A stretch of DNA of 64,000 nt, taken from Nocardioides sp. W7. Lineage in GTDB: Bacteria; Actinomycetota; Actinomycetes; Propionibacteriales; Nocardioidaceae. Below are positions 19,608 to 34,118 of this stretch, piece by piece. Location of the stretch: NCBI RefSeq assembly GCF_022919075.1, contig NZ_CP095078.1:1364001-1428000 (forward strand), read 5' to 3'. A program made the translations under genes and the position numbers. The number at the start of each line of letters is the position of its first letter. The stretch's first letter is position 1. Under the pieces are notes generated by a model. That model did not search any database. It was not told where the DNA came from and was given only the letters and a program-made list of their open reading frames with translations.

Positions 19608-20372
19608 TCACCCACCGACGGCGGCCGTCGAGCGGCTCCAGGCCGCCGCGAGGGTGGCGCGGTGGGCCTCCCCGGCCAGGGCCCGCACGAGCGTGCCGCC
19701 GCACTCCAGCCGGAGGCACTGCGGCGAGTCCGGCTCGCCGGGGTCGGCCCCGAGGGTGAGGACGGTGGCGAGCACCCGGCGCCCGCCGAGCAGCATCCCG
19801 GTGCTCTCGGGTGCGAGGTCGATCTCCTCGACGAGCAACGGCGTCCCGTCGTCCGAGGTGGCGTCCAGCCGGTGCCGCACCCGCCCGGGCCACTCGCCGT
19901 ACCGGCCCAGGACCAGCTGTTCCCGGAGCGCCAGGCGGGCGCCGAGGGCCAGGCGGAGGCGCGTGCGGCGTCGTACGTCGGAGCCGGCGGCGGCGACGAA
20001 CGGCTCGCCGTGCCAGAGCAGCCGGGCATCCTGGTCCAGGCGGACGTCGACGTCCCAGGTGGCGCTGCCGCCGCGCATGTCGTAGGCGACCGTGCCGGCC
20101 GGCTCGAGGAGCTCGAGGGTGGCGCCGGCTCCGACGTGGACCTCGACGACCATGGCGTCGCGGGCGAGGAGCAACGCCCCCTCGGCCACCAGGGCGACCC
20201 GTGCGGAGGCGGATCCCGCGGCCACGAGCACCGGCCGGAGCAGGGGCAGGTCCGGCCGGGCGGACGCCTCGAGCCCCACCCGGACGCGGCCGACGTCCGA
20301 CCGCTCGACGGTGATCCGGGTGCGGCTCGCGGTGGCGAAGCCGACGTCCGGCTCAGGCGTGGACGTGACCAT
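19608..20372 (-). CDS. ureD: Urease accessory protein UreD
   Basis: 254 residues; the scaffold that holds apo-urease with UreF and UreG during nickel insertion. Recognisable UreD features include [21 protein letters not shown] and W-H-G-E-P-F. Last gene of the urea operon, overlapping the ureG end by 20 bp. Confidence 0.92.
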
Positions 20373-21087
20373 GCTCGAGTCCGTGCTGGTGGTCGTGGTC
20401 GGGCGCGTGCCAGTGCGGCGCCATCGGCCCGGGGTCGACGGGGACCAGGCGGCCGTCCCGGTGCCGGGCGAGCTGGCCGCGCACCCACGCCGTGAGCTCG
20501 TCGACGGAGGCCCGGTCGGTGCGGGAGAGCGCGATGACCGGCCGGCCGTCGCGGGCCGCGCGGGCGTCGGCGACCATCTGGTCCCGGTCGACGCCGACGT
20601 ACGGCGCCAGGTCGGTCTTGTTGACGATCAGGAGGTCGGCCCGCTCGATCCCCGGCCCGCCCTTGCGGGCGACGTCGCCACCGCCCGCGATGTCGAGGAC
20701 GAACACCTGCACGTCGACCAGCGCGGGGGAGAAGGTCGCCGTGAGGTTGTCACCGCCGGACTCCAGCAGGACGAGGTCGAGCGGGCTGAAGTCCGCCTCG
20801 AGCTCCTCGACGGCCAGCAGGTTGGCGGTGATGTCGTCGCGGATCGCGGTGTGGGGGCACGCCCCCGTCTCGACCGCGCGGATCCGCTCCGGGTCGAGGA
20901 CCCCCGCGGAGCGGAGCAGGCGGGCGTCCTCGTCGGTGTAGATGTCGTTGGTGACGACGCCGAGCCGCAGCCCGCCCGCGAGCTCGCGGCACAGCAACGC
21001 GATCAGCGAGCTCTTGCCGGTGCCCACGGGGCCGCAGACGCCCAGGCGCATCGCGCGGGTCGGGCTGGGACGGGTCTGGTCAGGCAC
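20353..21087 (-). CDS. ureG: Urease GTPase UreG with C-terminal histidine tail
   Basis: 244 residues. GTPase that drives nickel delivery to urease. P-loop G-P-V-G-T-G-K-S-S near residue 19, [11 protein letters not shown], the nickel-binding Cys-Pro-His motif in [18 protein letters not shown] and N-K-T-D-L. The last roughly 20 residues form a His-rich tail (H-W-H, D-H-D-H-Q-H, H-G-H-V-H). His-rich stretches of UreG are more often N-terminal; with no ureE in the cluster this tail may supply nickel storage. Overlaps ureF by 8 bp. Confidence 0.97.
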
Positions 21088-21748
21088 TGAACAACCTCCG
21101 GCTCGAGACGGCGTGGGTCTCGGCCCACACCTCGACTTGGGGCATCGCGCCGGCCGGGACGGCCGACGGACAGGTCAGGGCGGCGAGGTCGTCGGCCAGC
21201 CGGTCGACCTCGACGAGGGCGTCGTGGACCCAGCCGGTCGCGGTCGCCGGGTCCAGGGGGAGCAGCTTGAGGGCGGCGGACGCGATCGTCTGCGCGTCGT
21301 CGTACCCCACCACCCGGGCGAGGGACGCCGCCCCCAGGTCGGCGGCCACCGCGACCGCGCCGAGGACCACGGCCCGCGAGGGCGCGGGCCCGGCGCGCAC
21401 GGTCTCGACGGCGGGATGCTCCGGCCACAGGCGTACGGCGAGGCGCAGCAGCGCCTGGGCCTGGGCGCGGGACGTGCGGCGCATCGCCGCGCTGGGGGTG
21501 CGGGCCGCCCACGCCGCCTCCACCGGCGCCACGGGCAGGTCCAGGAGGAGGAGGTGGCGGGCCACGACGGCGGTGCCGGCCTCGACCCGGGTCACCGACC
21601 GCAGCCGGGCCCGCAGGTAGACCGGGACGTGCGCCGCGCCGAGCCCGTCGCGGACCGCCGGCTCGAGCGAGCCCGACTGGGTGTGCCCCGCGACCGGCAG
21701 GCGCGCGTCGGCCAGCAGCATCATCACGAGCTCGGGGGAGACGGTCAT
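21080..21748 (-). CDS. ureF: Urease accessory protein UreF
   Basis: 222 residues from the ATG at 21748, 2 bp after the ureC stop. All-helical UreF with the typical opening ([15 protein letters not shown]) and C-terminal R-L-F-S-A. Recruits UreG to the UreD-urease complex and gates GTP hydrolysis. Upstream in-frame codons lie inside ureC and are not part of it. Confidence 0.94.
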
Positions 21749-21750
21749 GG

Positions 21751-23466
21751 CTAGAACAGGGAGTAGAGCTGCGCGAGCGGGAGGACGCCGGCCGGTGCGG
21801 GCTCGACCACCTCGCCGTCGATGGTGATCGCGAAGGTCTCGGGGTCGACCTCGATCTCGGGCAGCGCGCTGTTGTTGACCATGTCGGCCTTGCCGATGTC
21901 CCGCGTCGGCGCGACCGCCAGCAGCCGACGCCGCAGGCCGAGCTCGTCGGCGAGACCCGCGTCGAGCGCCGCCGGGGCGACGAAGGTGACGGCGTGGTCG
22001 GCGCCGCTCCCGTCCGCGGGGTCCACCAGCGTCGGGCGCATCAGCACCGGCTGTGGTGTCGGGATGGACGCGTTCGGGTCGCCGAGCGCGCCCCACACCA
22101 GGGCGCCGCCCTTCATCACCACCTGGGGCCGGATCCCGAAGAAACGGGGGTCCCAGAGCACCAGGTCGGCGAGCTTGCCGGGCTCGACCGAGCCGACCTC
22201 GTGGGCGATCCCGTGGGCGATCGCCGGGTTGATCGTGTACTTCGCGACGTAGCGCCGCGCGCGGGCGTTGTCGGCCGGCCCGACGGGCAGGTGGGCGTCG
22301 CCCAGCCGGTGCTTCATCACGTGGGCGACCTGCCAGGTGCGGCAGACCACCTCACCGATCCGCCCCATCGCCTGGGCGTCCGAGGACGTGATGGAGAGCG
22401 CGCCCAGGTCGTGCAGGAGGTCCTCCGCCGCGATCGTGGTGGCCCGGATCCGGGACTCGGCGAAGGCGAGGTCCTCTGGCACCTGCGGGTTGAGGTGGTG
22501 GCACACCATCAGCATGTCGAGGTGCTCCGCGACGGTGTTGACCGTGTGCGGCAGGGTCGGGTTGGTCGACCCGGGGATGACGTGCGGCAGGGAGGCGATC
22601 TTCAGGATGTCGGGCGCGTGGCCGCCGCCGGCGCCCTCGGCGTGGAAGGCGTGGATCGAGCGCCCGGCGATGGCGCGGACCGTCGAGTCCAGGTAGCCGG
22701 CCTCGTTGAGGCTGTCGGAGTGCAGCGCGACCTGGAGGCCGAACTCGTCGGCGGCCCGGAGTGCGCTGTCGATCGCCGCGGGGGTGGAGCCCCAGTCCTC
22801 GTGCACCTTGTACGCCGCCGCTCCGCCGAGCGCCTGCTCGGCGAGGCCGGCCGCGCTCACGGTGTTGCCCTTGCCGAACAGCAGCAGGTTGACCGGCAGC
22901 GAGTCCAGGGCGCGGTGCACGGTGCGCAGGTGCCACGCGCCCGGGGTCACGGTCGTCGCCTTGGACCCCTCCGACGGTCCGGTGCCGCCGCCGCCGATGG
23001 TGGTGATGCCGGTCGCCAGCGCCTCGGCGATCTGGGAGCGCGACAGCAGGTGGACGTGGACGTCGATCGCCCCGGCCGTGAGGATCCGGCCCTCGCCGGA
23101 GATCACGTCGGTCGACGGGCCGATCTCCATCAGCGGGTGCACCCCGTCGGCGACGTCGGGGTTGCCGGCCCGCCCGAGGGCGACGATCCGGCCGTCGCGG
23201 ATGCCCACGTCGGCCCGGACGATCCCCCAGTGGTCCAGGACCACGGCGTTCGTGATCACCGTGTCGAGCGCGCCGTCGGCCCGGGTGGCACTGCCCTGGG
23301 CCATCGACTCGCGGATCGACTTCCCGCCGCCGAACACCGCCTCCTCGCCGCCGAAGGTCAGGTCCTCCTCGACCTCGATCCACAGGTCGGTGTCGCCCAG
23401 GCGGACCTGGTCGCCGACGGTCGGTCCGTAGAGGGCGGCGTACGCCGCGCGCGAGAGCTCAGCCAC
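21751..23466 (-). CDS. ureC: Urease alpha subunit
   Basis: 571 residues, the full length of a bacterial UreC. Hydrolyses urea to ammonia and carbamate. Nickel ligands H-V-H, the carbamylated lysine in [28 protein letters not shown], the mobile-flap motif V-C-H-H-L, and the nickel Asp region S-S-D-A-Q-A-M are all present. The first codons overlap the ureB stop. Confidence 0.99.
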
Positions 23467-23803
23467 CGGTCGGGCCCCCTTGCTGGCCGGCCTTGACCTG
23501 GATCCCGGGCACGAGCCGGCGTCCGCGGAGGGCGACGATCCCGATCTCGATCGACGCGCCCGGCTCGAACCGGCGCGACGTCCCCGACGCGATGTCGAGC
23601 CGGAAGCCGGTCGAGAGCTGCCGGTCGAACGCCAGGGCGGCGTTCACCTCGGCCAGGTGGATGTGCGAGCCGATCTGCACGGGCCGGTCCCCGGTGTTCA
23701 CGATGACCAGCGTCCGGCGCTCGTCGGGGCCGCGGTCGGCGTTGATCTCGACGGTGCCGGGAGCGACCCGGATCGCTCCGGGACCGGCGGACTGGCTGGC
23801 CAT
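23459..23803 (-). CDS. ureB: Urease beta subunit
   Basis: 114 residues from the ATG at 23803, with GAGGAGAAGAGG upstream. Core [22 protein letters not shown] and [15 protein letters not shown] are classical UreB. Structural subunit of the alpha-beta-gamma trimer. Confidence 0.98.
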
Positions 23804-23832
23804 CGTGGTCCTCTTCTCCTCGGGTGCCGGGG

Positions 23833-24135
<303 letters not shown>

Positions 24136-24145
24136 CGCGCGGCCC

Positions 24146-24838
24146 TCAGACGGCCATCGCCGCGCGAACGGCGTCGACCGCGTCCGGACCACCCTCACCG
24201 TGGGAGGTCACCCGGCCCGACTCCAGCACGTAGTAGCGGTCGGTGACCCGGAGTGCGAAGCCGACATGCTGCTCGACCAGCAGGACGGCGAGGTCACCGC
24301 GCCCGGTGAGCGCGGTGATCACCCGCTCGATCTCGGCGACCACGTTGGGCTGGATGCCTTCGGTCGGCTCGTCGAGGATCAGCATCCGCGGCTCGGTCAG
24401 GAGCGTCCGGGCGATGGCGAGCTGTTGGCGCTGGCCACCGGAGAGCAGGCCGGCCTTGCGGGCGAGCAACCCCGTCAGGGCCGGGAACGTGTCCAGCACC
24501 TCGTCGATCAGGCGGGCCGCGCCCGCCCGTTGGTGGGCGACGAGCTGGAGATTCTCGAGGGTGGTCAGCTGCGGGAAGGACAGCTGCCCCTGCGGCACGT
24601 AGCCGAGGCCGCGCCGTACCCGCTGGTTGGGCCGCAGCCGGGTGACGTCCTCACCGTCGAGGCGGATGGTCCCGGAAGTGACGGGCAGCAGCCCGACGGC
24701 GGCCCGCAGCAGCGTGGTCTTGCCCGCGCCGTTGTGGCCCATGACCGCAGCCGCCTGGCCGGTCGGTACGACCAGGTCGACGTCGTGGACGACGGCGGTG
24801 CGGCCGTAGCCGATGCTGACGCCGGTGAGCTCGAGCAT
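24146..24838 (-). CDS. urtE: Urea ABC transporter ATPase UrtE
   Basis: 230 residues from ATG 24838, LivF-like ATPase. Walker [10 protein letters not shown], signature L-S-G-G-Q-R-Q-Q, Walker [13 protein letters not shown] (the E-G-I-Q-P end is typical of UrtE). Powers urea import together with UrtD; shares 1 bp with the urtD stop. Confidence 0.96.
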
Positions 24839-25638
24839 CAGCCCTCCCCTCCTGCGGCCTCGGCGACGACCGCCTCGGGATCGGCGTTGACGGCGTCGGC
24901 CGTGCGGCCCAGGTAGACCTCCTGGACCCGGTCGTCGGCCTGGATCTGGGCCACGGTCCCCTCCGTGAGTACCTTGCCGGCGTGCATGACGGTGACCTTG
25001 TCCGCGAAGCTGCGGACGAACTCCATGTCGTGCTCGATGACGACGATGGTGCGCTCCCCACCGATCCGCCGGAGCAGCTCGCCGGTCGCCTCGCGCTCCT
25101 CGGCGCTCATCCCGGCGACCGGCTCGTCGAGCAGCATCACCTTCGCGTCCTGGACGAGCAGCATGCCGATCTCGAGCCACTGCTTCTGGCCGTGCGCCAG
25201 GATGCCGGCCGGCCGGTCCCGCAGGGCGCTCAGCCCGATGGTCTCGAGCACGGTCTCGACCGCCTCCGGCACCCCGCGCCGCGGCAGGGCCAGCCGCCAG
25301 GCCCGGCGGTGCAGCCCGCCGGCGATGTCGAGGTTCTGCAGCACGCTGAGCTCGTCGAAGACGGTCGCGGTCTGGAAGGTCCGCCCGATGCCGGCGCGCA
25401 CGATCTGGTGTGCCTTGAGTGCGAGCAGGTCCTGGTTCCCGTAGCGGGCCAGACCGGTGCCCCTGACCAGGCCGGTGAGGGCGTCCACCAGGGTGGTCTT
25501 GCCGGCGCCGTTCGGCCCGATCAGGAAGTGCAGCTCGCCCTGCAGCAGGGTGAGGTCGACCCCGTCGATCGCCTTGAACCCGTCGAAGTCGACGGACAGG
25601 CCCTGGACCTCCAGGTAGTCCATGCCGCGGCCGCTCAT
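24838..25638 (-). CDS. urtD: Urea ABC transporter ATPase UrtD
   Basis: 266 residues from ATG 25638 (overlapping the urtC stop, ATGA); a second ATG follows five codons later at 25623. LivG-like ATPase with Walker A G-P-N-G-A-G-K-T-T, the UrtD-type signature A-H-G-Q-K-Q-W-L-E-I-G, and Walker B V-M-L-L-D-E-P-V-A-G-M. Dimerises with UrtE below the UrtBC channel. Confidence 0.96.
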   Translation of the reverse strand: MSGRGMDYLEVQGLSVDFDGFKAIDGVDLTLLQGELHFLIGPNGAGKTTLVDALTGLVRGTGLARYGNQDLLALKAHQIVRAGIGRTFQTATVFDELSVLQNLDIAGGLHRRAWRLALPRRGVPEAVETVLETIGLSALRDRPAGILAHGQKQWLEIGMLLVQDAKVMLLDEPVAGMSAEEREATGELLRRIGGERTIVVIEHDMEFVRSFADKVTVMHAGKVLTEGTVAQIQADDRVQEVYLGRTADAVNADPEAVVAEAAGGEG

Positions 25639-26756
25639 ACCGCCTCCGCCTGCTCGGTCCGGCCGCGTCGTACGACGGAGGACCAGGCCCGCCGTCGTAC
25701 GACGGAGGACCACACCCTCGGCGGCAGCGAGGCGAAGCCGGCCGGGATCAGCAGGATGACCCCGATGAACAGGGCACCCTGGAAGTACGTCCACTGGTTG
25801 GGGAACGACTCGGACAGCGCCGATTGGCCGTAGCCCACGGCGAGGGCACCGAGCGCCGGGCCGAGCAGCGAGGCCCGGCCGCCGAGGGCGACGCCGGCGA
25901 TCATCAGGATCGACGCGGTCGCGTTGACGTCGGACGGCGAGATGATGCCCGCGATCGGCGCGAACATCGCACCGCCGATGCTCGCCATGATGGCCGCGAG
26001 CACGAACGCGGTGAGCTTGACGTTCGCCGGGTCGTAGCCGAGGAAGCGCACCCGCTCCTCGGCGTCGCGGGTCGCGATCAGCAGCTCGCCGAACCGGCTC
26101 CGGTTGAGGTGCCACACCAGGACCAGACAGCCGATCAGCAGGCCCGCGACGATGAAGTAGAGCATCCGCTTGTTCACCGGGTCGTAGAGGTTGTAGCCGA
26201 AGAACGTCGTGAAGCTGTTGAGCCCGTTGAAGCCGCCGGTCTGCTTGATGGTCGCGACCAGCAGGGTCGCGAAGGCCACCGCCATCGCCTGGGTGAGGAT
26301 CGCGAAGTACGCGCCCCGGACGCGGCGCTTGAAGATCGCGTAGCCGAGGATCCCCGCGACGACCGCGGGGAGCACCACGATCACGACCAGGGTGAACGCG
26401 CCGCTGCGGAACGGCTCCCACCAGCCGGGCATGGTCGCGTCGCCGTACAGCACCATGAAGTCGGGGACGTTGCCCGGTCCGGCGGCCTCGAGCTTCAGGT
26501 GCATCGCCATGGCGTAGCCGCCCAGGCCGAAGAAGACGCCCTGGCCCATCACGAGCATGCCGCCGCGGCCCCAGGCCAGGCCGATGCCGACGGCGGCGAT
26601 CGCCCAGCAGCAGTACTTCGCGAGGTTGCTGAGCCGGAAGTCGCTCAGGACGGCGGGCGCGAGCACCAGCAGCCCGACCGCGACCGCCGCGATGCCGAGC
26701 AGCCCGCCCCAGGTCCGCAGGTCGAGGCGGGGTGACGCCGTCGTACGGGCGCTCAT
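25635..26756 (-). CDS. urtC: Urea ABC transporter permease UrtC
   Basis: 373 residues, LivM-like, with about eight to ten membrane spans and the EAA-like loop near G-Y-D-P-A-N-V-K-L-T-A-F. The cytoplasmic C-terminus carries an in-frame 27-bp duplication that repeats W-S-S-V-V-R-R twice. Overlaps urtB and urtD by 4 bp each. Confidence 0.95.
   Translation of the reverse strand: MSARTTASPRLDLRTWGGLLGIAAVAVGLLVLAPAVLSDFRLSNLAKYCCWAIAAVGIGLAWGRGGMLVMGQGVFFGLGGYAMAMHLKLEAAGPGNVPDFMVLYGDATMPGWWEPFRSGAFTLVVIVVLPAVVAGILGYAIFKRRVRGAYFAILTQAMAVAFATLLVATIKQTGGFNGLNSFTTFFGYNLYDPVNKRMLYFIVAGLLIGCLVLVWHLNRSRFGELLIATRDAEERVRFLGYDPANVKLTAFVLAAIMASIGGAMFAPIAGIISPSDVNATASILMIAGVALGGRASLLGPALGALAVGYGQSALSESFPNQWTYFQGALFIGVILLIPAGFASLPPRVWSSVVRRRAWSSVVRRGRTEQAEAV
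25666..25712. repeat. 27-bp tandem duplication in the urtC tail
   Basis: CGTCGTACGACGGAGGACCA occurs at 25666-25685 and 25693-25712. Both copies contain the palindrome CGTCGTACGACG. In frame, it duplicates nine codons of UrtC. Confidence 0.85.
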
Positions 26757-27637
26757 GCCAGGCCCCGGGTGCGGACCGTGAACAGGCCCTGCGGGCGGAC
26801 CTGCAGGAAGACGACCACCAGGGCGAACGTGACGACCTGCGCCGTGCTGCCGCTGAACCGGTCGGTCAGGAAGGCGGTCGCGACACCGACCAGCCAGGCC
26901 GCGATCACGGTTCCCTTGAGCTGGCCGAGCCCGCCCGCGACGACGACGAGGAACGCCGGGATGATGTAGCTGGTCCCGAGGTTGGGATTGGTGCCCGACG
27001 CGAGCGCCAGGGCGACGCCCCCGATGCCGGCCAGCCCGGAGCCGACGAAGAAGGTGATCCGGTCGACGCGCCGCGTCGAGATCCCCAGCGTCTCGGCGAG
27101 ATCACGGTTCTGCACCGTCGCCCGGATCTGTCGGCCGAAGGAGCTGTAGCGCAGCAGCGCCGACAGGGCCGCCAGTGACGCGATCGCGAGGACGATCGTG
27201 AAGATGCGGGTGAAGGGCCAGTTGTAGCCGGCGACGGCGATGCTGCCGTCGAGCCAACCCGGCTCGCGGACCGGGTCGCCCTGGGCGCCGAAGAGGTCCT
27301 TGGCGAGCTGCTGGAGAACCATCGAGACGCCGACCGTGACCAGGAGCGTGTCGAGCGGTCGGGCGTACATCCAGCGGATGACCCCCGCCTCCAGCGCGAG
27401 GCCGAGCAGCCCGGTCACCACGAAGGCGACGGGGATCGCGACGAGCAGCGAGATGTCGGCACTGGTGACGACCTGCTGGGTGAGGTAGGTCGTGTAGGCA
27501 CCGGCCATCAGGAACTCGCCGTGGGCCATGTTGATGACGCCCATCTGGCCGAACGTGAGGGCGAGACCCAGGGCGGCGAGCAGCAGGATCGCGGCCGTCG
27601 AGGTGCCGGTGAGCAGGGGGGTGGTGAAGGAGTCCAT
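26753..27637 (-). CDS. urtB: Urea ABC transporter permease UrtB
   Basis: 294 residues from the ATG at 27637 (GGAAAGG upstream). LivH-like: about eight spans, G-L-A-L-T-F-G-Q-M-G-V-I-N-M-A-H-G-E near the N-terminus, and the conserved loop A-E-T-L-G-I-S-T-R-R-V-D. Forms the translocation path with UrtC. Confidence 0.96.
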   Translation of the reverse strand: MDSFTTPLLTGTSTAAILLLAALGLALTFGQMGVINMAHGEFLMAGAYTTYLTQQVVTSADISLLVAIPVAFVVTGLLGLALEAGVIRWMYARPLDTLLVTVGVSMVLQQLAKDLFGAQGDPVREPGWLDGSIAVAGYNWPFTRIFTIVLAIASLAALSALLRYSSFGRQIRATVQNRDLAETLGISTRRVDRITFFVGSGLAGIGGVALALASGTNPNLGTSYIIPAFLVVVAGGLGQLKGTVIAAWLVGVATAFLTDRFSGSTAQVVTFALVVVFLQVRPQGLFTVRTRGLA

Positions 27638-27722
27638 GCCGACCTTTCCAGTCGGTGGTCCCGCGCCCGGAGCAGGGCGCGGGACCACCGGTCGTCGTGC
27701 TGGCGTCTGGTTCAGGGCCGGG

Positions 27723-28973
27723 TCACTCGGCCTTCGGGTCCCACCAGTCGTAGCCCTCGAGGAACGGGTCGGGCTCGATCGGCTCCTCGGAGCTCCACAC
27801 CACGTCGAACTGGTTGTCGGAGTTGATCTGACCGATCAGGCCGGTCTTGGCGATGTGGTGGTTCTCGCCGTTGATGGTGACGGTGCCCTCGGGTGCGTCG
27901 AAGCTGACGCCGTCGGAGGCAGCGTTGACGTCGTCGACGTCGAAGGACTCGGCCTTCTCGACGATGTTCTTGTAGAGGTAGAGCGAGGTGTACGCCGCCT
28001 CCATCGGGTCGGAGGTCGGGCGGTCCGCGCCGTACTCGGCCTGGAACGCCTTGATGAACGCGGCGTTGTCGGGGGACTCCACGGACTGGAAGTAGTTCCA
28101 GGCCGCGAACTGCCCGGTGACGTCCTTGCCCATCGCGGGGGCCTCCTCCTCGGCGATGGACACCGAGATGATCGGGGAGCTGTCCGGGCCGAGGCCCTGC
28201 TCGTAGTAGGCCTTGATGAAGCCGACGTTGGACGAGCCGTTGATGGTGTTGAAGACGAAGTCGGGCTTGGCCTCGACGATCTTCGCCACCTGCGTCGACC
28301 AGTCGTCGCTGTCGAGCGGGACGTACTCCTCGCCGACGATCTCGATCCCGAGCTCGGCGGCGTACTGCTTGATGATCTTGTTGGCGGTCCGCGGGAAGAC
28401 GTAGTCGGACCCCGCGAGGAACAACGTCTTGACGCCCTTGCCGGCGAGGAAGTCCATCGCCGGGATGATCTGCTGGTTCGTGGTCGCGCCGGTGTAGTAG
28501 ATGTTCTCGGACGCCTCGAGGCCCTCGTACTGGACCGGGTAGAAGAGCAGGCCGTTGGCACCCTCGACGACCGGCAGCATCGCCTTGCGCGATGCGGAGG
28601 TCCAGCCGCCGAAGACCGAGGCGACGCAGTCGCTGGTGAGCAGCTTCTCGACCTTCTCCGCGAAGACCGCCGGGTCGCTGGCGCCGTCCTCCTCGACCGG
28701 CTCGATCTGCTTGCCCAGGATTCCGCCGGCGGCGTTGATCTCGGACGCGGCGAGGAGCAGCGAGTCGCGGACGGTCTGCTCGCTGATGGCCATGGCGCCC
28801 GACGTGGAGTTCAGGAAGCCGAGCTTGATGGTGTCGCCCGAGGTGTTGACACAGCTCTCGGTGGAGGCTGCGTCGGATCCGTCCTCAGACTTGCTGCCGC
28901 AGTTGCTCAGGACCAGGGACGCGGCCAGGGCCGCTGCGGTACTCGCCGCCAGGCGAGTGCGTGATGTGGACAC
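27723..28973 (-). CDS. urtA: Urea-binding lipoprotein UrtA
   Basis: 416 residues from the GTG at 28973 (GAGAGG upstream). The signal peptide ends L-V-L-S-N-C, making Cys25 the lipidation site; Asn before the Cys is unusual for a lipobox. The mature part matches the UrtA family, with G-S-D-Y-V-F-P-R, Y-V-P-L-D-S-D-D-W and N-G-S-S-N-V-G-F. Captures urea at the cell surface for UrtBCDE. First gene of the urea operon. Confidence 0.95.
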   Translation of the reverse strand: MSTSRTRLAASTAAALAASLVLSNCGSKSEDGSDAASTESCVNTSGDTIKLGFLNSTSGAMAISEQTVRDSLLLAASEINAAGGILGKQIEPVEEDGASDPAVFAEKVEKLLTSDCVASVFGGWTSASRKAMLPVVEGANGLLFYPVQYEGLEASENIYYTGATTNQQIIPAMDFLAGKGVKTLFLAGSDYVFPRTANKIIKQYAAELGIEIVGEEYVPLDSDDWSTQVAKIVEAKPDFVFNTINGSSNVGFIKAYYEQGLGPDSSPIISVSIAEEEAPAMGKDVTGQFAAWNYFQSVESPDNAAFIKAFQAEYGADRPTSDPMEAAYTSLYLYKNIVEKAESFDVDDVNAASDGVSFDAPEGTVTINGENHHIAKTGLIGQINSDNQFDVVWSSEEPIEPDPFLEGYDWWDPKAE

Positions 28974-29049
28974 GGATGGGACCTCTCGGGATGAAGACCG
29001 CCACGAGCACGTCGCTGTGCTCCCTATGGCCGAGGACGTTAGGAATCCG

Positions 29050-29094
29050 GGATTTCGAATTACTACCAAGTGGAATTAAATCCGTGTAACACGG
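29050..29094 (-). promoter_or_regulatory. Putative urea-operon promoter and operator
   Basis: On the minus strand TTACAC (29089-29084), 18 bp, then TAGTAA forms a plausible -35/-10 pair, about 85-110 bp before the urtA start. The -35 lies within the palindrome CCGTGT-A-ACACGG (29082-29094). GTTAC/GTAAC here matches one GlnR-type half site, but the second half is poor, so nitrogen control is only suggested. Confidence 0.4.
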
Positions 29095-29219: not shown

Positions 29220-31520
29220 ATGGCGACGAGCGTGCTGGGCGTCGACCGCAACTACTCGAGCCTGTCCGTGCGGGACCTGCTCGAGGCCCGCGACCACTAC
29301 CACTGGCATCTGACCCACCTGGCCAACGTCGTGGGGACCGCGGTCGGGCTCTACTACATCCGCACCCAGGACCCCTGGCCCTCGCGAGAGGCGTCGTACC
29401 GGACGATCAGGCAGCAGCGGACGGAGTCCGAGGAGGTCAGGCCTCCGCGGACGTTCGCGAACAGCGAGATTCGCGAGTACTCGTGGCCGTGCGTGCTCGT
29501 CCTCGTCGACACCTGGCTCGACACGGGTGAGTTCGGCAGCGGGCCCGGTGCGAGTGCCGCACCGACCGACATGGTGCCGAAGACGCTCTTCCTCCCGGAC
29601 GGCCGGACCGTTCCCGTGTGCGTCGTCCTGGTCAGTCGCGAGCAGCCGACGGCCGAGCTGATGCCGCGGTGGTCCTGGCCACGGACCCGGGTGGGCGGCG
29701 GATGCCCGCTCATCAGTGCCGTGCAGGGCCGCGACAATGTCGCGAGCGTGGGGGCGCTCGTCACCGACGGGCACACGACGTACGCGCTGACGAGCCGCCA
29801 CGTGGCCGGACCCGAGGGCCACCCGGCGAGCACGATCCTCGGCGGACGTCGGGTCGAGATCGGCAGGTCCGCCTCGCGCCAGATCACGCGCCTGCCGTTC
29901 TCCGAGGCCTACCCCGAGTACGCCGGCCGCCGCTCCCACCTGACGGTCGACGTCGGCCTGGTCGCCGTGGAGGATCTCGACGACTGGACGTCCCAGGTGC
30001 TCGGGCTGCCGCACGTCGGCGAGCTGGCGGACCTCAGCGAGCGCAACATCGGGACCCGGCTCATCGACGCCCCTGTCACGGCGTACGGCGCCGCCTCCGG
30101 CCTGCTGAGGGGCCGGGTCGCGGCCTTGTTCTTCCGGCACCGCAGCCGTGGTGGGTACGACGACGTCACCGACTTCCTGATCGCTCCGGTCCCCGGCACC
30201 GCCGGATCCCAACCCGGTGACTCCGGCACGGTGTGGCACCTGGCCGAGACCGACGACACCGGTCTCGAGACGCTTCGACCGCTCGCCGTGCAGTGGGGAG
30301 GCCAGCGGTTCGGCTCGTCCGCGGTGGGTGCGGAGGGATTCAACTTCGCCCTCGCCGCCAGCATGACCACGGTCCTGCGCCTGCTCGACGTCGAGCTGGT
30401 CGTCGAGCACAACACCAGCGCCCAGCCCTTCTGGGGGAAGACCGGTCACTACTCGATCGCCGCGCTGGCGTGCACGACCCTCGCCCCTGGTCAGCTCGCG
30501 ACCCTGATGACCGCGAACACGGACCGGATCAGCTTCGACGTCGACCAGCTGGACCCCCGGCACGTCAACGACGCGACCGTGGCCGCGAAGAAGGCAGGCG
30601 AGTTCATCCCGCTCGCGGACGTCCCCGACCTGGTCTGGAAGACCACGCCCGACCAGGTCCAGGGGGGACGGGATGTCCGAGCGCGCGTCGGACCCGAGCA
30701 TCCGGCGCACCACGCGGACGGCGACGTCGCCGACGCGGACGGAGCGACCTTGCGCGGACTCACGCTCGCGGACCCCGCCAACCTGTCCGTCGAGGTGTGG
30801 CAGGACTTCTACACCCGCACGGGCCACGCTCAGTCCCGGGAGCGTGGCCTGCTCCCGTTCCGGGTGTGGCAGTTCTTCGACGAGATGACCGAGGCCGCGG
30901 CACGAGGAGACACGGCGAGGTTCGTCTGTGCCGCAGGCCTGCTCTCCCACTACGTCGGAGACGCCTGCCAGTCCCTGCACGGATCGCAGCACGCCGACGG
31001 GATCCGTGGAGACGAGCTGATCGGCCAGGGTGTCCACTCCGCCTACGAGAGCGCCATGGTCGACCATCACGCCGTCGAACTGCTCGCGGGGATGCACGAG
31101 GCGATCGATGGACAGGCTGTCGTCACGCCCCAGCTGGTCGGAACGGGTCACCAGGCCGCCTCGGCCGTCGTCGGACTGATGGAGCGAAGCGCCCGACGGG
31201 TGGACCCGCTCGCCTTGGCAACGGCCTACGCGGTGACTCAGCAGGGCCGGACCGCGAAGCACCCCACCAAGAACAAGACCGTCACCACTGCCCTGTGGCA
31301 GCAGTTCGGTGAGGGCACGACACTCAACATGGCGGACGGAGTCGTCACTCTGGCCATGCTGTGGGAGTCGGCCTGGGAGGCGGGTTCCAGCGGGGACCCC
31401 CTTCCCGCCCACCTGCTCGGCCCGGCCGACCGTGACGAGCTCAGGGCTCTGTATGAGGATCCGAAGTTCGTCGAGTCACTCGACCTGGACCAGGTCGGCG
31501 CGGTCCTGTCGCCACCCTGA
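29220..31520 (+). CDS. Trypsin-like protease fused to zinc phospholipase C/P1-nuclease-fold domain
   Basis: 766 residues; GGAGGGACG precedes the ATG; no signal peptide. N-terminal helical part (1-150). Trypsin-like domain (about 160-395): His194 in L-T-S-R-H-V-A-G, Asp244 in L-T-V-D-V-G, Ser335 in G-D-S-G-T. C-terminal domain (about 400-760): W405-G-K-T-G-H410 and H577-Y-V-G-D581-x5-H587, matching the zinc sites of S1/P1 nuclease and phospholipase C, plus H606-x3-E610 as in phospholipase C. This suggests an intracellular hydrolase that might be proteolytically controlled. The natural role is unknown. Stands alone; convergent with the LuxR regulator. Confidence 0.8.
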   Translation: MATSVLGVDRNYSSLSVRDLLEARDHYHWHLTHLANVVGTAVGLYYIRTQDPWPSREASYRTIRQQRTESEEVRPPRTFANSEIREYSWPCVLVLVDTWLDTGEFGSGPGASAAPTDMVPKTLFLPDGRTVPVCVVLVSREQPTAELMPRWSWPRTRVGGGCPLISAVQGRDNVASVGALVTDGHTTYALTSRHVAGPEGHPASTILGGRRVEIGRSASRQITRLPFSEAYPEYAGRRSHLTVDVGLVAVEDLDDWTSQVLGLPHVGELADLSERNIGTRLIDAPVTAYGAASGLLRGRVAALFFRHRSRGGYDDVTDFLIAPVPGTAGSQPGDSGTVWHLAETDDTGLETLRPLAVQWGGQRFGSSAVGAEGFNFALAASMTTVLRLLDVELVVEHNTSAQPFWGKTGHYSIAALACTTLAPGQLATLMTANTDRISFDVDQLDPRHVNDATVAAKKAGEFIPLADVPDLVWKTTPDQVQGGRDVRARVGPEHPAHHADGDVADADGATLRGLTLADPANLSVEVWQDFYTRTGHAQSRERGLLPFRVWQFFDEMTEAAARGDTARFVCAAGLLSHYVGDACQSLHGSQHADGIRGDELIGQGVHSAYESAMVDHHAVELLAGMHEAIDGQAVVTPQLVGTGHQAASAVVGLMERSARRVDPLALATAYAVTQQGRTAKHPTKNKTVTTALWQQFGEGTTLNMADGVVTLAMLWESAWEAGSSGDPLPAHLLGPADRDELRALYEDPKFVESLDLDQVGAVLSPP

Positions 31521-31595: not shown

Positions 31596-34118
31596 TCAGC
31601 CGAGCAGGCCGAGCTGGTAGCCGCGGCGTACGGCGTCGTGCCGGTCGCGGACGCCGAGCTTGCGGTACAGCGAGGAGGCCTGGGTCTTCACGGTGTTGCG
31701 GGAGACGAACAGCTCCCGGGCGGCCTGGTCGAGGGAGAGCCCCCGGGCGAGGGCGCTGAGCACCGTGGTCTCCCGGGGGGTGAGGTCGGGGAGGTCGTGC
31801 ACCTCCGTCTGCGGGGGGCGGACGCGGGCCTCGTCCAGCATCGCCAGGATCTCCGCGAGTCCTGGCACGGCGGCGCGGTGTGCGTCCAGGAGTCGGCGCG
31901 GCACCCGGGAGAACGGCAGCGCGAGTCGCTCGCGCTGGGCGATCCGGACGGCATCCGTCAGCAGCTCCCGGGCGGCGACGTGGTCGGGCTCGTCCTGGCA
32001 CCACGCGGCCAGCACCAGGGCCTCGATCCGGGCCGAGACGAAGGGGTGGCCGGTCGAGAGCGCCGGCTGCAGGAGGAGCTGCGCGTCCTCGGCCCGTCCC
32101 GTGGAGAGCGCCAGCCGGGCGCGCGTGACGGCGGCGAACGCCGACCCGGGGTCCAGCTCGGCCAGGACCTGGGTCGCGGGCCCGGTGCGGCCCAGCGAGA
32201 GCCAGATCTCGGCCTCGGCGGCGCCGAGCAGTCCGGCGATCCAGTCCCGGCCCGGCTGGGCCCGCTCGCGCGCGCCGGCGAGCCGGGCGCTCACCCGCGA
32301 GCGTCCGCCCCAGGCCAGGGCGTGCTGGGACTCGACCCACAGCGTGAACGGCCACAGCTCGTGGTCGACGGGGACCTCCTGGCGCAGCGCCCGCAGCTCG
32401 GTGTCGTCGGGGTCGAGGGCCTGGACCCGGTCGGCGGCCTGGGCGATCCGGGCGGCGGCGTCGACGGCGGGGGCCGGGCCGGTGTCGGGTGGGCGGACGG
32501 CGCGCCACTGGTCCTGCCAGTGCGAGGCGGCCTCACGGTCGCCCTGGAGTACGGCGCCGAGGGCCAGCCGTCCCGCGGCGTCGGCAGCGACGGCATCGCG
32601 GCCGTCGGTGCCGTCGACGGCGGTGCGCAGGTCCGTGGTCGCGGCGGTCGTCTCCCCGGTCAGCAGCCAGACCGTGCCGGTCTGCCAGGCGGCGCGGCGC
32701 AGGACGGGGGCGGCCGGTCCCGGCCCGGAGGTGCGCAGCGCCGCAGCCAGGGGCTCGGCTCGCCGGGCGAGTCGCGCCGCCGCGGCCAGGTCGCCGCGGC
32801 CGATCTCGCGGCGGACGAGGAGGGCCAGGAGATCCAGGGCCTGGGCGACGCTCTCGGGGGCGCGGGCGGCGTGGTCCTCGTCGGACGTCGACAGCAGGTC
32901 CGCCGTCCACGCCCGGAGGGCGGGGGACTCGGGATCGGTCTCGTCGGGAGCGATGAGCTGGCGGCCGATCTCGACCCGGGGCCGGTCGCGTATCTCGCTC
33001 GGAGGGATCCGCCGCAGGTCCCGGCGCAGCCCGGCCGGGTCCTCGACGAGGAGCTCCCACCAGTGCTCGTCGACGATGTCGACCGCCAGCGGCCACGCCC
33101 GACCCGCCACGGCCTGCCGGAGGGCACGCCCGGGCTCGGCCGCAGCCAGCCAGTGCCGCGCGACCGACGCGTGCAGGACCGCGGGCGGGCCGAGCTCGGC
33201 GTCGTCGTAGCAGCCGCGGAAGTAGTCCCGCATCACGGGCGGGAGCCGGACCAGCGGCTCTCCGGAGCTGATCAGCGGATCGAGGATCCCGATGATCTCC
33301 AGGGGGATCCGGGCGTCGTCGTCCAGGGGACCGGTGGCGGCGAGGACGGCGCCGTACGTCGGCTCCTCGACCAGCGCGGCCCGCCGGAGGGCGGACCAGG
33401 CCGCCGACGGCAGCGTGGGCACCAGGTTGACGGTCAGGAACCAGGCGACGTGCCGCGGGGACCACCGGGTCACGGTGCGGCCGTCGCTGTCGGGGAGGGA
33501 CTCGAGACCGGTCCGGAGGAGCGCCGCCGACCCCCCGGTCGCAGCGCGGACGTCCTCGGCCTCGGCCTCGTCCAGGACCAGGTCGTGGAGGAGCGCCAGC
33601 TGCTGGACCTCCGCGGTCGTGAACAGGAAGTCGGCCGCGCCGACGATCCGTGTCTCGGCCTCCAGGAGAGCCTTGGCCACCGGGTCGAGGCGGCGACGCA
33701 GGCACGCGACGAGGTGGACGTCGTGGCAGTCGCGGACCACCTCGACGAGCCCGTCCCCGATGGCCTCGAGGATCGGCTCGGCGTTGTTCATGACGAGCGC
33801 GAGTCGCCGGTCGAGTCCCTGGAGGCGCCGGCGCATCAGGCGCAGCGTGGTCGACGGGTCGGGGCTCGGGTCGACCCCGGCGTGCCGGGCCAGAGCGGCC
33901 ACGACGTCGGCCGGCTCGTCCACCTCCCCGTCCACCCAGATGACGTCATCGCCCTCGGTGACGGCGTGCGTCGCCCACCGGGTCGCCAGGACCGCCTTGC
34001 CGGCGCCGGACGGCGCGAGCAGCACGGTGATCGGCGACCAGCGGTCGAGCAGCGCCATCAGCTGCGGGCGCACCAGGAAGTCGGGGTTGACGCGCGGCAG
34101 TGGGAAGCGGGGACTCAT
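31596..34118 (-). CDS. LuxR/MalT-like large regulator with degenerate P-loop
   Basis: 840 residues: N-terminal STAND-type ATPase region, a long helical repeat region (about 300-760), and a C-terminal LuxR DNA-binding domain (L-T-P-R-E-T-T-V-L-S-A-L-A-R-G-L-S, then N-T-V-K-T-Q-A-S-S-L-Y-R-K-L-G). The Walker A is A-P-S-G-A-G-K41-A42, lacking the usual Ser/Thr after Lys, and the Walker B position reads L-V-M-N-N-A-E with Asn in place of Asp. Nucleotide hydrolysis is therefore probably lost. Target unknown. Confidence 0.92.
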   Translation of the reverse strand: MSPRFPLPRVNPDFLVRPQLMALLDRWSPITVLLAPSGAGKAVLATRWATHAVTEGDDVIWVDGEVDEPADVVAALARHAGVDPSPDPSTTLRLMRRRLQGLDRRLALVMNNAEPILEAIGDGLVEVVRDCHDVHLVACLRRRLDPVAKALLEAETRIVGAADFLFTTAEVQQLALLHDLVLDEAEAEDVRAATGGSAALLRTGLESLPDSDGRTVTRWSPRHVAWFLTVNLVPTLPSAAWSALRRAALVEEPTYGAVLAATGPLDDDARIPLEIIGILDPLISSGEPLVRLPPVMRDYFRGCYDDAELGPPAVLHASVARHWLAAAEPGRALRQAVAGRAWPLAVDIVDEHWWELLVEDPAGLRRDLRRIPPSEIRDRPRVEIGRQLIAPDETDPESPALRAWTADLLSTSDEDHAARAPESVAQALDLLALLVRREIGRGDLAAAARLARRAEPLAAALRTSGPGPAAPVLRRAAWQTGTVWLLTGETTAATTDLRTAVDGTDGRDAVAADAAGRLALGAVLQGDREAASHWQDQWRAVRPPDTGPAPAVDAAARIAQAADRVQALDPDDTELRALRQEVPVDHELWPFTLWVESQHALAWGGRSRVSARLAGARERAQPGRDWIAGLLGAAEAEIWLSLGRTGPATQVLAELDPGSAFAAVTRARLALSTGRAEDAQLLLQPALSTGHPFVSARIEALVLAAWCQDEPDHVAARELLTDAVRIAQRERLALPFSRVPRRLLDAHRAAVPGLAEILAMLDEARVRPPQTEVHDLPDLTPRETTVLSALARGLSLDQAARELFVSRNTVKTQASSLYRKLGVRDRHDAVRRGYQLGLLG

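What the first reader, a model, noticed from the sequence alone, without database searches (positions are those of the whole stretch)
29220..31520. Trypsin-like protease fused to a zinc phospholipase C/P1-nuclease-like domain
One 766-residue cytosolic protein carries a full Ser protease triad (H194, D244, S335) and, after it, W405-G-x2-G-H410, H577-x3-D581-x5-H587 and H606-x3-E610, the metal ligand pattern of S1/P1 nuclease and PC-phospholipase C. Zinc PLC/P1 enzymes are normally exported single-domain proteins with an N-terminal Trp ligand released by processing; here Trp405 lies just after the protease domain. Self-cleavage before W405 could activate the nuclease/lipase, an arrangement suited to a conflict effector.
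Basis: partly seen in the sequence, partly recalled or inferred. Interest (0 to 1): 0.75.

Follow-up and report, generated by a model that had tools for sequence, protein, structure and literature searches.

The report
Protease fused to zinc P1-type nuclease
A single bacterial protein joins a protein-cutting enzyme to a zinc enzyme of the S1/P1 nuclease and phospholipase C kind, whose active site normally needs a freed chain end, so the protein may switch its own nuclease or lipase on by cutting itself.

Summary
One 766-residue ORF (29220-31520, +) has a NAL1-like trypsin-fold protease (about residues 8-401; H194/D244/S335) and, from Trp405, an S1/P1-nuclease/zinc-PLC fold: for residues 405-766 alone, all 29 S1/P1/PLC entries listed align residue 405 to their mature N-terminus at Z 15.2-18.7, the next unrelated entry at 3.6. 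The fusion is found in eight phylum-level groups but rarely (1 of 294 genomes of its own family), with no N-terminal hydrophobic segment (41 of 41) and no recurrent partner gene. Residue 404 before Trp405 is bulky or Thr and switches with residue 361 of the protease's substrate strand (45 of 45 rows), over only 1-2 evolutionary events. Best reading: a self-activating zymogen and likely conflict effector. Fold and ligands are shown; cleavage, substrate and defence role are inferred. Two Leifsonia copies lack any such protease, which counts against strict self-dependence. New variant of a known kind (protease-activated nuclease effectors).

The parts
29220..31520 (+). Single-gene CDS, 766 aa (P0001): NAL1-like protease + S1/P1-PLC-fold domain
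29220..30404 (+). Residues 1-395: NAL1-like trypsin-fold protease region
   Evidence: Pfam Nal1_C 28.7 bits against cut-off 26.1; NAL1 8pn2 Z 35.7, 3.0 A over 330 residues; profile against NAL1 7y77 E 1e-17
29799..29801 (+). His194 of the catalytic triad
   Evidence: 46 of 47 rows
29949..29951 (+). Asp244 of the catalytic triad
   Evidence: 48 of 48 rows
30222..30224 (+). Ser335, nucleophile (GDSG)
   Evidence: 49 of 49 rows
30300..30302 (+). Gly361, substrate-strand residue (chymotrypsin position 216 or 217, unresolved) that switches together with residue 404
   Evidence: Gly in 31/31 rows without Thr404, never Gly in 14/14 rows with Thr404; 1-2 events
30387..30431 (+). Residues 390-404: linker; predicted self-cleavage between Phe404 and Trp405
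   Evidence: residue 389 to Trp405 is 16 residues in 45 of 47 rows, 17 in 2; 400-405 pLDDT <50; cleavage inferred
30432..31517 (+). Residues 405-766: S1/P1 nuclease / zinc-PLC fold domain, predicted mature enzyme
   Evidence: alone pLDDT 92.7, pTM 0.93; S1 nuclease 5fb9 Z 18.7, 3.5 A over 235 residues
30432..30434 (+). Trp405 = mature N-terminal Trp of S1/P1/PLC enzymes
   Evidence: 50 of 51 rows, one masked
30447..30449 (+). His410, predicted zinc ligand (His6 of P1)
30618..30620 (+). Asp467, predicted zinc ligand (Asp470 is the alternative)
   Evidence: 51/51; assignment by order and spacing only
30708..30710 (+). His497, predicted zinc ligand
   Evidence: 51/51; assignment by order and spacing only
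30948..30980 (+). His577-x3-Asp581-x5-His587, predicted zinc ligands
   Evidence: 51/51; aligned to AtBFN2 and SmNuc1 motifs
31035..31049 (+). His606-x3-Glu610, predicted zinc ligands (Asp in S1/P1, Glu in B. cereus PLC as recalled)
   Evidence: 51/51; aligned

Best explanation
A one-polypeptide zymogen. The NAL1-like serine protease (residues about 8-401) is kept idle until an unknown trigger acts. It then cuts the flexible linker between residues 404 and 405, in cis or between protomers. The cut makes Trp405 the chain's N-terminus, and its freed amino group and carbonyl complete the three-zinc centre (Trp405, His410, Asp467/470, His497, His577, Asp581, His587, His606, Glu610), switching on a P1-type phosphodiesterase in the cytosol: most likely a nuclease, less likely a phospholipase C. 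The likely outcome is destruction of nucleic acid (or membrane) in an infected or stressed cell. SHOWN here: both folds, the triad, the ligand set, the place of Trp405, lack of an N-terminal hydrophobic segment, rare and scattered occurrence. INFERRED: the cleavage, its activating effect, the substrate, the trigger and the conflict role.
For: S1/P1/PLC fold with residue 405 on mature residue 1 in all 29 family entries, Z 15.2-18.7 against 3.6 for the next entry and likewise in the 16 such rows for the full-length model. Profile alignment puts W405 on Trp1 and the ligand motifs in register. In SmNuc1 the N-terminal Trp27 binds zinc through its main chain (passages, PMC11705217), so an invariant but internal Trp (50 of 51, one masked) makes sense mainly if it is freed. 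With Trp405 as first residue the model's first ten residues have mean pLDDT 97; in the full-length model the block 401-410 has 59 and 400-405 are below 50. The linker has fixed length (16 in 45 of 47 rows) and residue 404 is Y20/F10/T14/L2/R1; Thr404 goes with a non-Gly residue 361 and the others with Gly361 in 45 of 45 rows; 361 is the only column of residues 1-395 that is at least 95% one residue in the non-Thr rows and at most 15% in the Thr rows. No secretion signal seen (41 of 41), so signal peptidase cannot free the Trp; in the Mesorhizobium locus L035 a canonical S1/P1 nuclease next door has its Trp at residue 29, after a hydrophobic leader. Precedents: protease-activated pro-nuclease HamM (PMC12799240); trypsin+NucA fusions (PMC7159879 passages; PMC13236601).
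Against: No experiment. Two Leifsonia loci encode the zinc domain alone, without secretion signal, with about 17 residues before the Trp, and their genomes have no NAL1-like protease at E<=0.001, so the Trp is kept without the cognate protease. The P1 residue is not single. The 404/361 link is 1-2 events; monophyly of the Thr rows is not rejected (p-AU 0.073) and the independent-pairs test had 1 pair on supported branches; hhalign placed 361 at position 217 rather than 216, with a weak score. pTM of the full model is 0.59, so the domain arrangement is unknown. Foldseek alone gave no E<=0.001 for the zinc domain (best 0.0042, ranks 1-34 all of this family). The query's Pfam scores for S1-P1_nuclease and Zn_dep_PLPC are under the curated cut-offs. 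No defence-island context, no phage or viral copies. In LypC, a trypsin+nuclease fusion, mutating the nuclease had no effect on lysis.
Confidence: 0.5

Rival explanations
1. The protease is the working part and cuts other proteins; the zinc domain senses or binds a ligand, or stabilises the protein, and its catalysis is secondary.
For: In LypC (trypsin + NucA-type nuclease) the protease serine is essential for lysis while the nuclease residues are dispensable (PMC13236601 section 9). NAL1 relatives in plants act on other proteins (recalled; PMC12915138 passages mention in vitro degradation assays).
Against: All metal ligands are invariant in 51 of 51 rows, and the zinc domain survives alone in two Leifsonia genomes while the protease is never seen alone in the 48+4 foreign loci; the search was seeded with the fusion, so lone proteases could be missed.
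Confidence: 0.17
2. A zymogen as above, but the zinc domain is a phospholipase C that attacks the cell's own membrane.
For: B. cereus PLC entries score Z 17.3-17.7 beside 18.7 for S1 nuclease, a difference within about one unit; 42 of 47 members hit Zn_dep_PLPC against 43 for S1-P1; the last ligand is Glu; phospholipases replace gasdermins in some CARD-NLR systems (PMC13236601).
Against: The Trp-x4-His spacing and WGxxGH start are those of S1/P1, and sequence-profile hits in the PDB are nucleases only (6 of 6). Tools cannot assign the substrate.
Confidence: 0.15
3. A bifunctional cytosolic enzyme without processing: an internal Trp405 suffices and both domains work constitutively in ordinary turnover.
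For: Leifsonia keeps a Trp with a 17-residue leader and no protease; the gene stands alone between a urea-transport operon and a LuxR-type regulator gene, with no mobile or defence genes recognised beside it.
Against: Patchy presence (1 of 294 family genomes, 1 of 296 in a phylum sample), carriage on rhizobial and Sphingobium plasmids and at least four broken copies (L003, L004, L018, L019) do not look like housekeeping; the Trp's known role is through its chain end.
Confidence: 0.15

Closest known systems
HamM/Avs1 MBL-fold pro-nuclease with trypsin-like protease (Tuck et al. 2025, PMC12799240)
   Same: A trypsin-like protease paired with a nuclease; published data show the nuclease is a proenzyme switched on by proteolysis.
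   Different: There the nuclease is an MBL fold in a separate gene, gated by inserted loops, and the protease is fused to a core defence protein; here one polypeptide, S1/P1 fold, proposed activation by creating a metal-binding chain end.
NucA-trypsin systems, including LypC (Kaur et al. 2020, PMC7159879; PMC13236601)
   Same: Trypsin-like peptidase and nuclease, sometimes in one protein; [quoted passage not shown]
   Different: NucA/EndA-type (HNH superfamily) nuclease, EAD1 or CARD-NLR partner genes; none of these seen here.
S1/P1 nucleases and zinc-dependent PLC (SmNuc1, P1, AtBFN2, B. cereus PLC)
   Same: Fold, ligand order, Trp at the first position of the domain.
   Different: Those are single-domain exported enzymes whose leader frees the Trp (general statement recalled; SmNuc1 Trp27); here cytosolic, preceded by a protease, with Glu as last ligand and a longer Asp-His interval (30 residues against 17 in SmNuc1).
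Rice NARROW LEAF 1 (NAL1)
   Same: Protease region and N-terminal extension align over 330 residues, Z 35.7.
   Different: Plant regulator without a zinc domain in the solved chains.
PADLOC PDLC03017 'trypsin-like'
   Same: Matches residues 8-724 at E 4.4e-47; the Leifsonia lone zinc domains match its positions 324-608 and 345-608, so the model itself spans both domains.
   Different: The library name mentions only the protease; which candidate system it belongs to is not told by the tool.
Het-C domain of polymorphic toxins (PMC3482391 passages)
   Same: Proposed relative of zinc PLC and S1-P1 nuclease used as a conflict effector.
   Different: Another family in secreted toxins; no protease of this kind described in the passages seen.

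Membership tests
S1/P1 nuclease / zinc-PLC superfamily | Overall fold | tested here: met
   29 entries Z 15.2-18.7, next 3.6; Foldseek ranks 1-34 all of this family though E only 0.0042-0.17
S1/P1 nuclease / zinc-PLC superfamily | Nine ligand residues in order | tested here: met
   Invariant in 51 of 51 rows (W405 50 of 51, one masked); seven confirmed by profile alignment, D467/D470 and H497 by order only; Glu610 for Asp
S1/P1 nuclease / zinc-PLC superfamily | Trp as the free N-terminus of the mature enzyme | not testable with these tools
   Trp405 is at the right place; its release is inferred
S1/P1 nuclease (Pfam PF02265) | Score above curated cut-off | tested here: not met
   17.5 bits against 29.5 for the query domain; hence filed as a divergent branch of the superfamily, not as a PF02265 member
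S1/P1 nuclease (canonical) | Secretion signal | tested here: not met
   No hydrophobic N-terminal segment in 41 of 41 rows
NAL1-like trypsin-fold protease (Pfam Nal1_C) | Profile score above cut-off | tested here: met
   28.7 bits against 26.1; 35 of 43 members at E<0.01
NAL1-like trypsin-fold protease (Pfam Nal1_C) | Fold and catalytic triad | tested here: met
   8pn2 Z 35.7; H194/D244/S335 conserved
HamM-type nuclease-protease pair | MBL-fold nuclease in a separate gene | tested here: not met
   The second domain is S1/P1 fold in the same polypeptide
NucA-trypsin system | NucA/Endonuclease_NS domain | tested here: not met
   Pfam scan shows Nal1_C, Zn_dep_PLPC, S1-P1 only
PADLOC PDLC03017 trypsin-like | Profile match over most of its length | tested here: met
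   E 4.4e-47, profile 4-575 of 611
Anti-phage defence system | Protects against phage | not testable with these tools
   No experiment; neighbours not enriched in defence genes

The most novel reading that the evidence does not exclude
The first zinc enzymes of the S1/P1-PLC superfamily that mature in the cytosol by their own fused protease: proteolysis does not unmask the active site but creates the last metal ligand, the amino terminus of Trp405, so that the switch is built into the metal centre. The two domains keep a matched cleavage site (residue 404) and substrate strand (residue 361) across eight phylum-level groups.
Probability: 0.42. Interest if true: 0.82.

Novelty: new variant of a known kind. 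Interest (0 to 1): 0.68.

Why it matters
Proteolytic switching of nucleases is a young theme in bacterial immunity. [quoted passage not shown] This family would be such a class with the whole switch in one chain and a chemically sharp mechanism that a single N-terminal sequencing experiment can test. In the searches made (of an open-access library only) no paper describing a trypsin-S1/P1 fusion was seen.

Tried and rejected
Rejected: chance ORF or chance motif (48 genome loci plus 4 plasmid records with relatives; 0 of 20,000 shuffles). Rejected: conserved operon partner (107 of the 359 selected neighbour ORFs scanned; no Pfam family in more than 3 of 107, no PADLOC family in more than 1; only the first 25 of 109 Pfam families were shown). 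Rejected: phage-borne gene in the collections searched. Tried without profit: an empty site in a sister genome. In G265 the urea operon is collinear with 20000-28861 at 78%, then the genes differ, so no clean insertion could be read. Tried: numbering residue 361 on trypsin by hhalign; the score was weak and gave 217, while anchoring on the conserved Gly211 (recalled alignment) gives 216; unresolved. Tried: which PADLOC system PDLC03017 belongs to; neither genome searches nor papers told it. Paper search for NAL1 biochemistry gave nothing used; one search gave nothing relevant; one search returned only PMC13236601. Foldseek's list for the full-length model shows only the protease in its first 50 rows; this was not taken as evidence about the zinc domain.

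Full report
What is there. The window (64 kb of a 5.51-Mb single-contig genome) holds one ORF at 29220-31520 (+) of 766 aa. By the ORF list it lies between the urea-transport genes on the minus strand (urtA-like protein 27723-29069) and a LuxR-type regulator-like ORF (31596-34118, minus strand); names of these two are read from sequence and context, not from a search. It is alone on its strand. Codon-position GC is that of a gene. Only this genome of 294 sampled in its family has it (262 of them at least 90% complete and at most 5% contaminated), and 1 of 296 in a phylum sample with the PADLOC model.

Relatives. tblastn found 4 plasmid records (Sphingobium, Sinorhizobium, Neorhizobium, Ensifer) and a genome-contig scan found 48 loci; the scan is seeded by two peptide patterns, so it is not exhaustive. 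By the origins printed with the trees, the rows come from eight phylum-level groups: Pseudomonadota, Actinomycetota, Bacteroidota, Acidobacteriota, Planctomycetota, Myxococcota, Ignavibacteriota and Candidatus Melainabacteria, many from metagenome bins. Nothing was found in IMG/VR in one scan or in the phage records. At least four copies are broken: L003, L004, L018, L019.

Protease half. Pfam Nal1_C is above its cut-off. The AlphaFold2 model (mean pLDDT 84.7, pTM 0.59) matches rice NAL1 over residues 8-401 (for example 8pn2, Z 35.7, 3.0 A, 330 residues) and, more weakly, alpha-lytic-type proteases (Z about 20). The triad is conserved; the only row with a changed His is L018, a decaying copy.

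Zinc half. Pfam hits to S1-P1_nuclease and Zn_dep_PLPC are weak for the query (below cut-offs) but recur: 43 and 42 of 47 members at E<0.01. A profile of 47 rows finds 6 PDB sequences at E<=0.1, all S1/P1-type nucleases (best AtBFN2, 8.6e-6), with W405 on residue 1 and the H-D-H and H-D/E motifs in register. Modelled alone from Trp405 the domain is confident (pLDDT 92.7, pTM 0.93) and all 29 S1/P1/PLC entries in the list begin at model residue 1, Z 15.2-18.7; the next entry has Z 3.6. Foldseek itself gives only E 0.0042 at best, with this family filling ranks 1-34. SmNuc1's ligands are W27, H32, D71, H88, H141, D145, H151, H175, D179 (passages, PMC11705217). The counterparts here are W405, H410, D467 (or D470), H497, H577, D581, H587, H606, E610, all invariant. 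The tools give no coordinates, so the metal site was not measured.

Why a zymogen. In SmNuc1 the N-terminal Trp binds zinc through its main chain; in secreted relatives a leader is removed just before it. Here the Trp is invariant yet internal, and none of 41 full rows has an N-terminal hydrophobic segment, whereas the canonical S1/P1 nuclease beside the Mesorhizobium copy does, ending just before its Trp29. The linker is disordered in the full model (400-405, pLDDT <50) and fixed in length (16 residues in 45 of 47). Residue 404 is Y20, F10, T14, L2, R1. In 45 of 45 rows that have both positions, Thr404 goes with a non-Gly residue 361 and a bulky 404 with Gly361. Residue 361 follows the W-G of the strand that binds substrate in this fold (chymotrypsin 216 or 217; unresolved), where Gly opens and larger residues narrow the S1 pocket in known proteases (recalled). 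Of columns 1-395 it alone is at least 95% one residue in the bulky-404 rows and at most 15% in the Thr rows. This is what self-cleavage at 404/405 predicts, but it is 1-2 events: both traits change twice on the same branches of the tree, one clade is not rejected (p-AU 0.073), and only one independent pair stands on supported branches. Of the plasmid copies, Sphingobium (Tyr, Gly) and Sinorhizobium (Thr, Ala) agree; for Ensifer and Neorhizobium BLAST put a gap beside 361, while the MAFFT alignment reads Arg with Thr in Ensifer.

What speaks against. Leifsonia L045 and L046 encode the zinc domain alone, about 17 residues before the Trp and no leader, and no NAL1-like protease elsewhere in the two genomes. 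They are the closest by zinc domain to the query (tree support 89/84, not starred), so they probably lost the protease. Either another protease frees the Trp there or freeing is not needed. The published LypC fusion shows that in a similar architecture the nuclease can be dispensable (PMC13236601).

Conflict role. For: rare, scattered, on plasmids in four records, broken copies, and the PADLOC model PDLC03017, which spans both domains. Against: 107 neighbour proteins gave no recurrent defence family (17 PADLOC families, one member each). Kaur et al. (PMC7159879, passages) describe NucA and trypsin, sometimes in one protein, as a conflict system likely run by a proteolytic cascade. Tuck et al. 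(PMC12799240; abstract, first part of Results, Discussion) show the principle for MBL-fold pro-nucleases. The present family fits this kind with a different nuclease fold and a single chain.

Verdict. Fold and ligand claims: about 0.97 sure. Self-activating zymogen: 0.5. Nuclease rather than phospholipase given a zymogen: about 3 to 1, on sequence likeness only. Organism: not named by the tools; a high-GC actinobacterium is inferred.

Noticed in passing
L007 10341-11171, L012 10329-11156, L017 2319-3305 (CHAD); L002 10388-10927 (CYTH); L048 4454-6733 (polyphosphate kinase): Genes of the polyphosphate theme (CHAD, CYTH, PPK1) sit next to the fusion gene in three lineages (Burkholderiaceae, Sphingobium, Acetobacteraceae). 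Seen after the fact, no background frequency measured; it could hint at a trigger or substrate.
   Followed up: partly
L003 10374-11381 and L044 10247-11278: A DUF3616 gene lies directly downstream on the same strand in Sinorhizobium and in an Obscuribacterales bin.
   Followed up: no
L035 10344-11204: A canonical S1/P1 nuclease (PF02265 E 4.9e-48) with hydrophobic leader lies 46 bp downstream of the Mesorhizobium fusion gene.
   Followed up: partly
L045 8001-9107, L046: Leifsonia encodes the zinc domain alone (368 aa in L045), closest by zinc domain to the window protein; protease lost or never present.
   Followed up: partly
L003, L004, L018, L019: Broken copies of the fusion gene in Sinorhizobium and Neorhizobium plasmids, Lichenibacterium and Paraburkholderia panacisoli; intact relatives exist.
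   Followed up: partly
window 30651-30686 (residues 478-489): A low-confidence loop between the D467 and H497 ligand positions (30 residues apart, 17 in SmNuc1); a possible second gate like the HamM insertions.
   Followed up: no
window 20000-28861: Urease/urea-transport cluster, collinear at 78% identity in one genus member, G265; urtA-like gene in 4 of 16 genus genomes searched at E<=1e-50.
   Followed up: partly
L008, L009, L010 just downstream: HipA-like genes convergent with the fusion gene in three Paraburkholderia.
   Followed up: no
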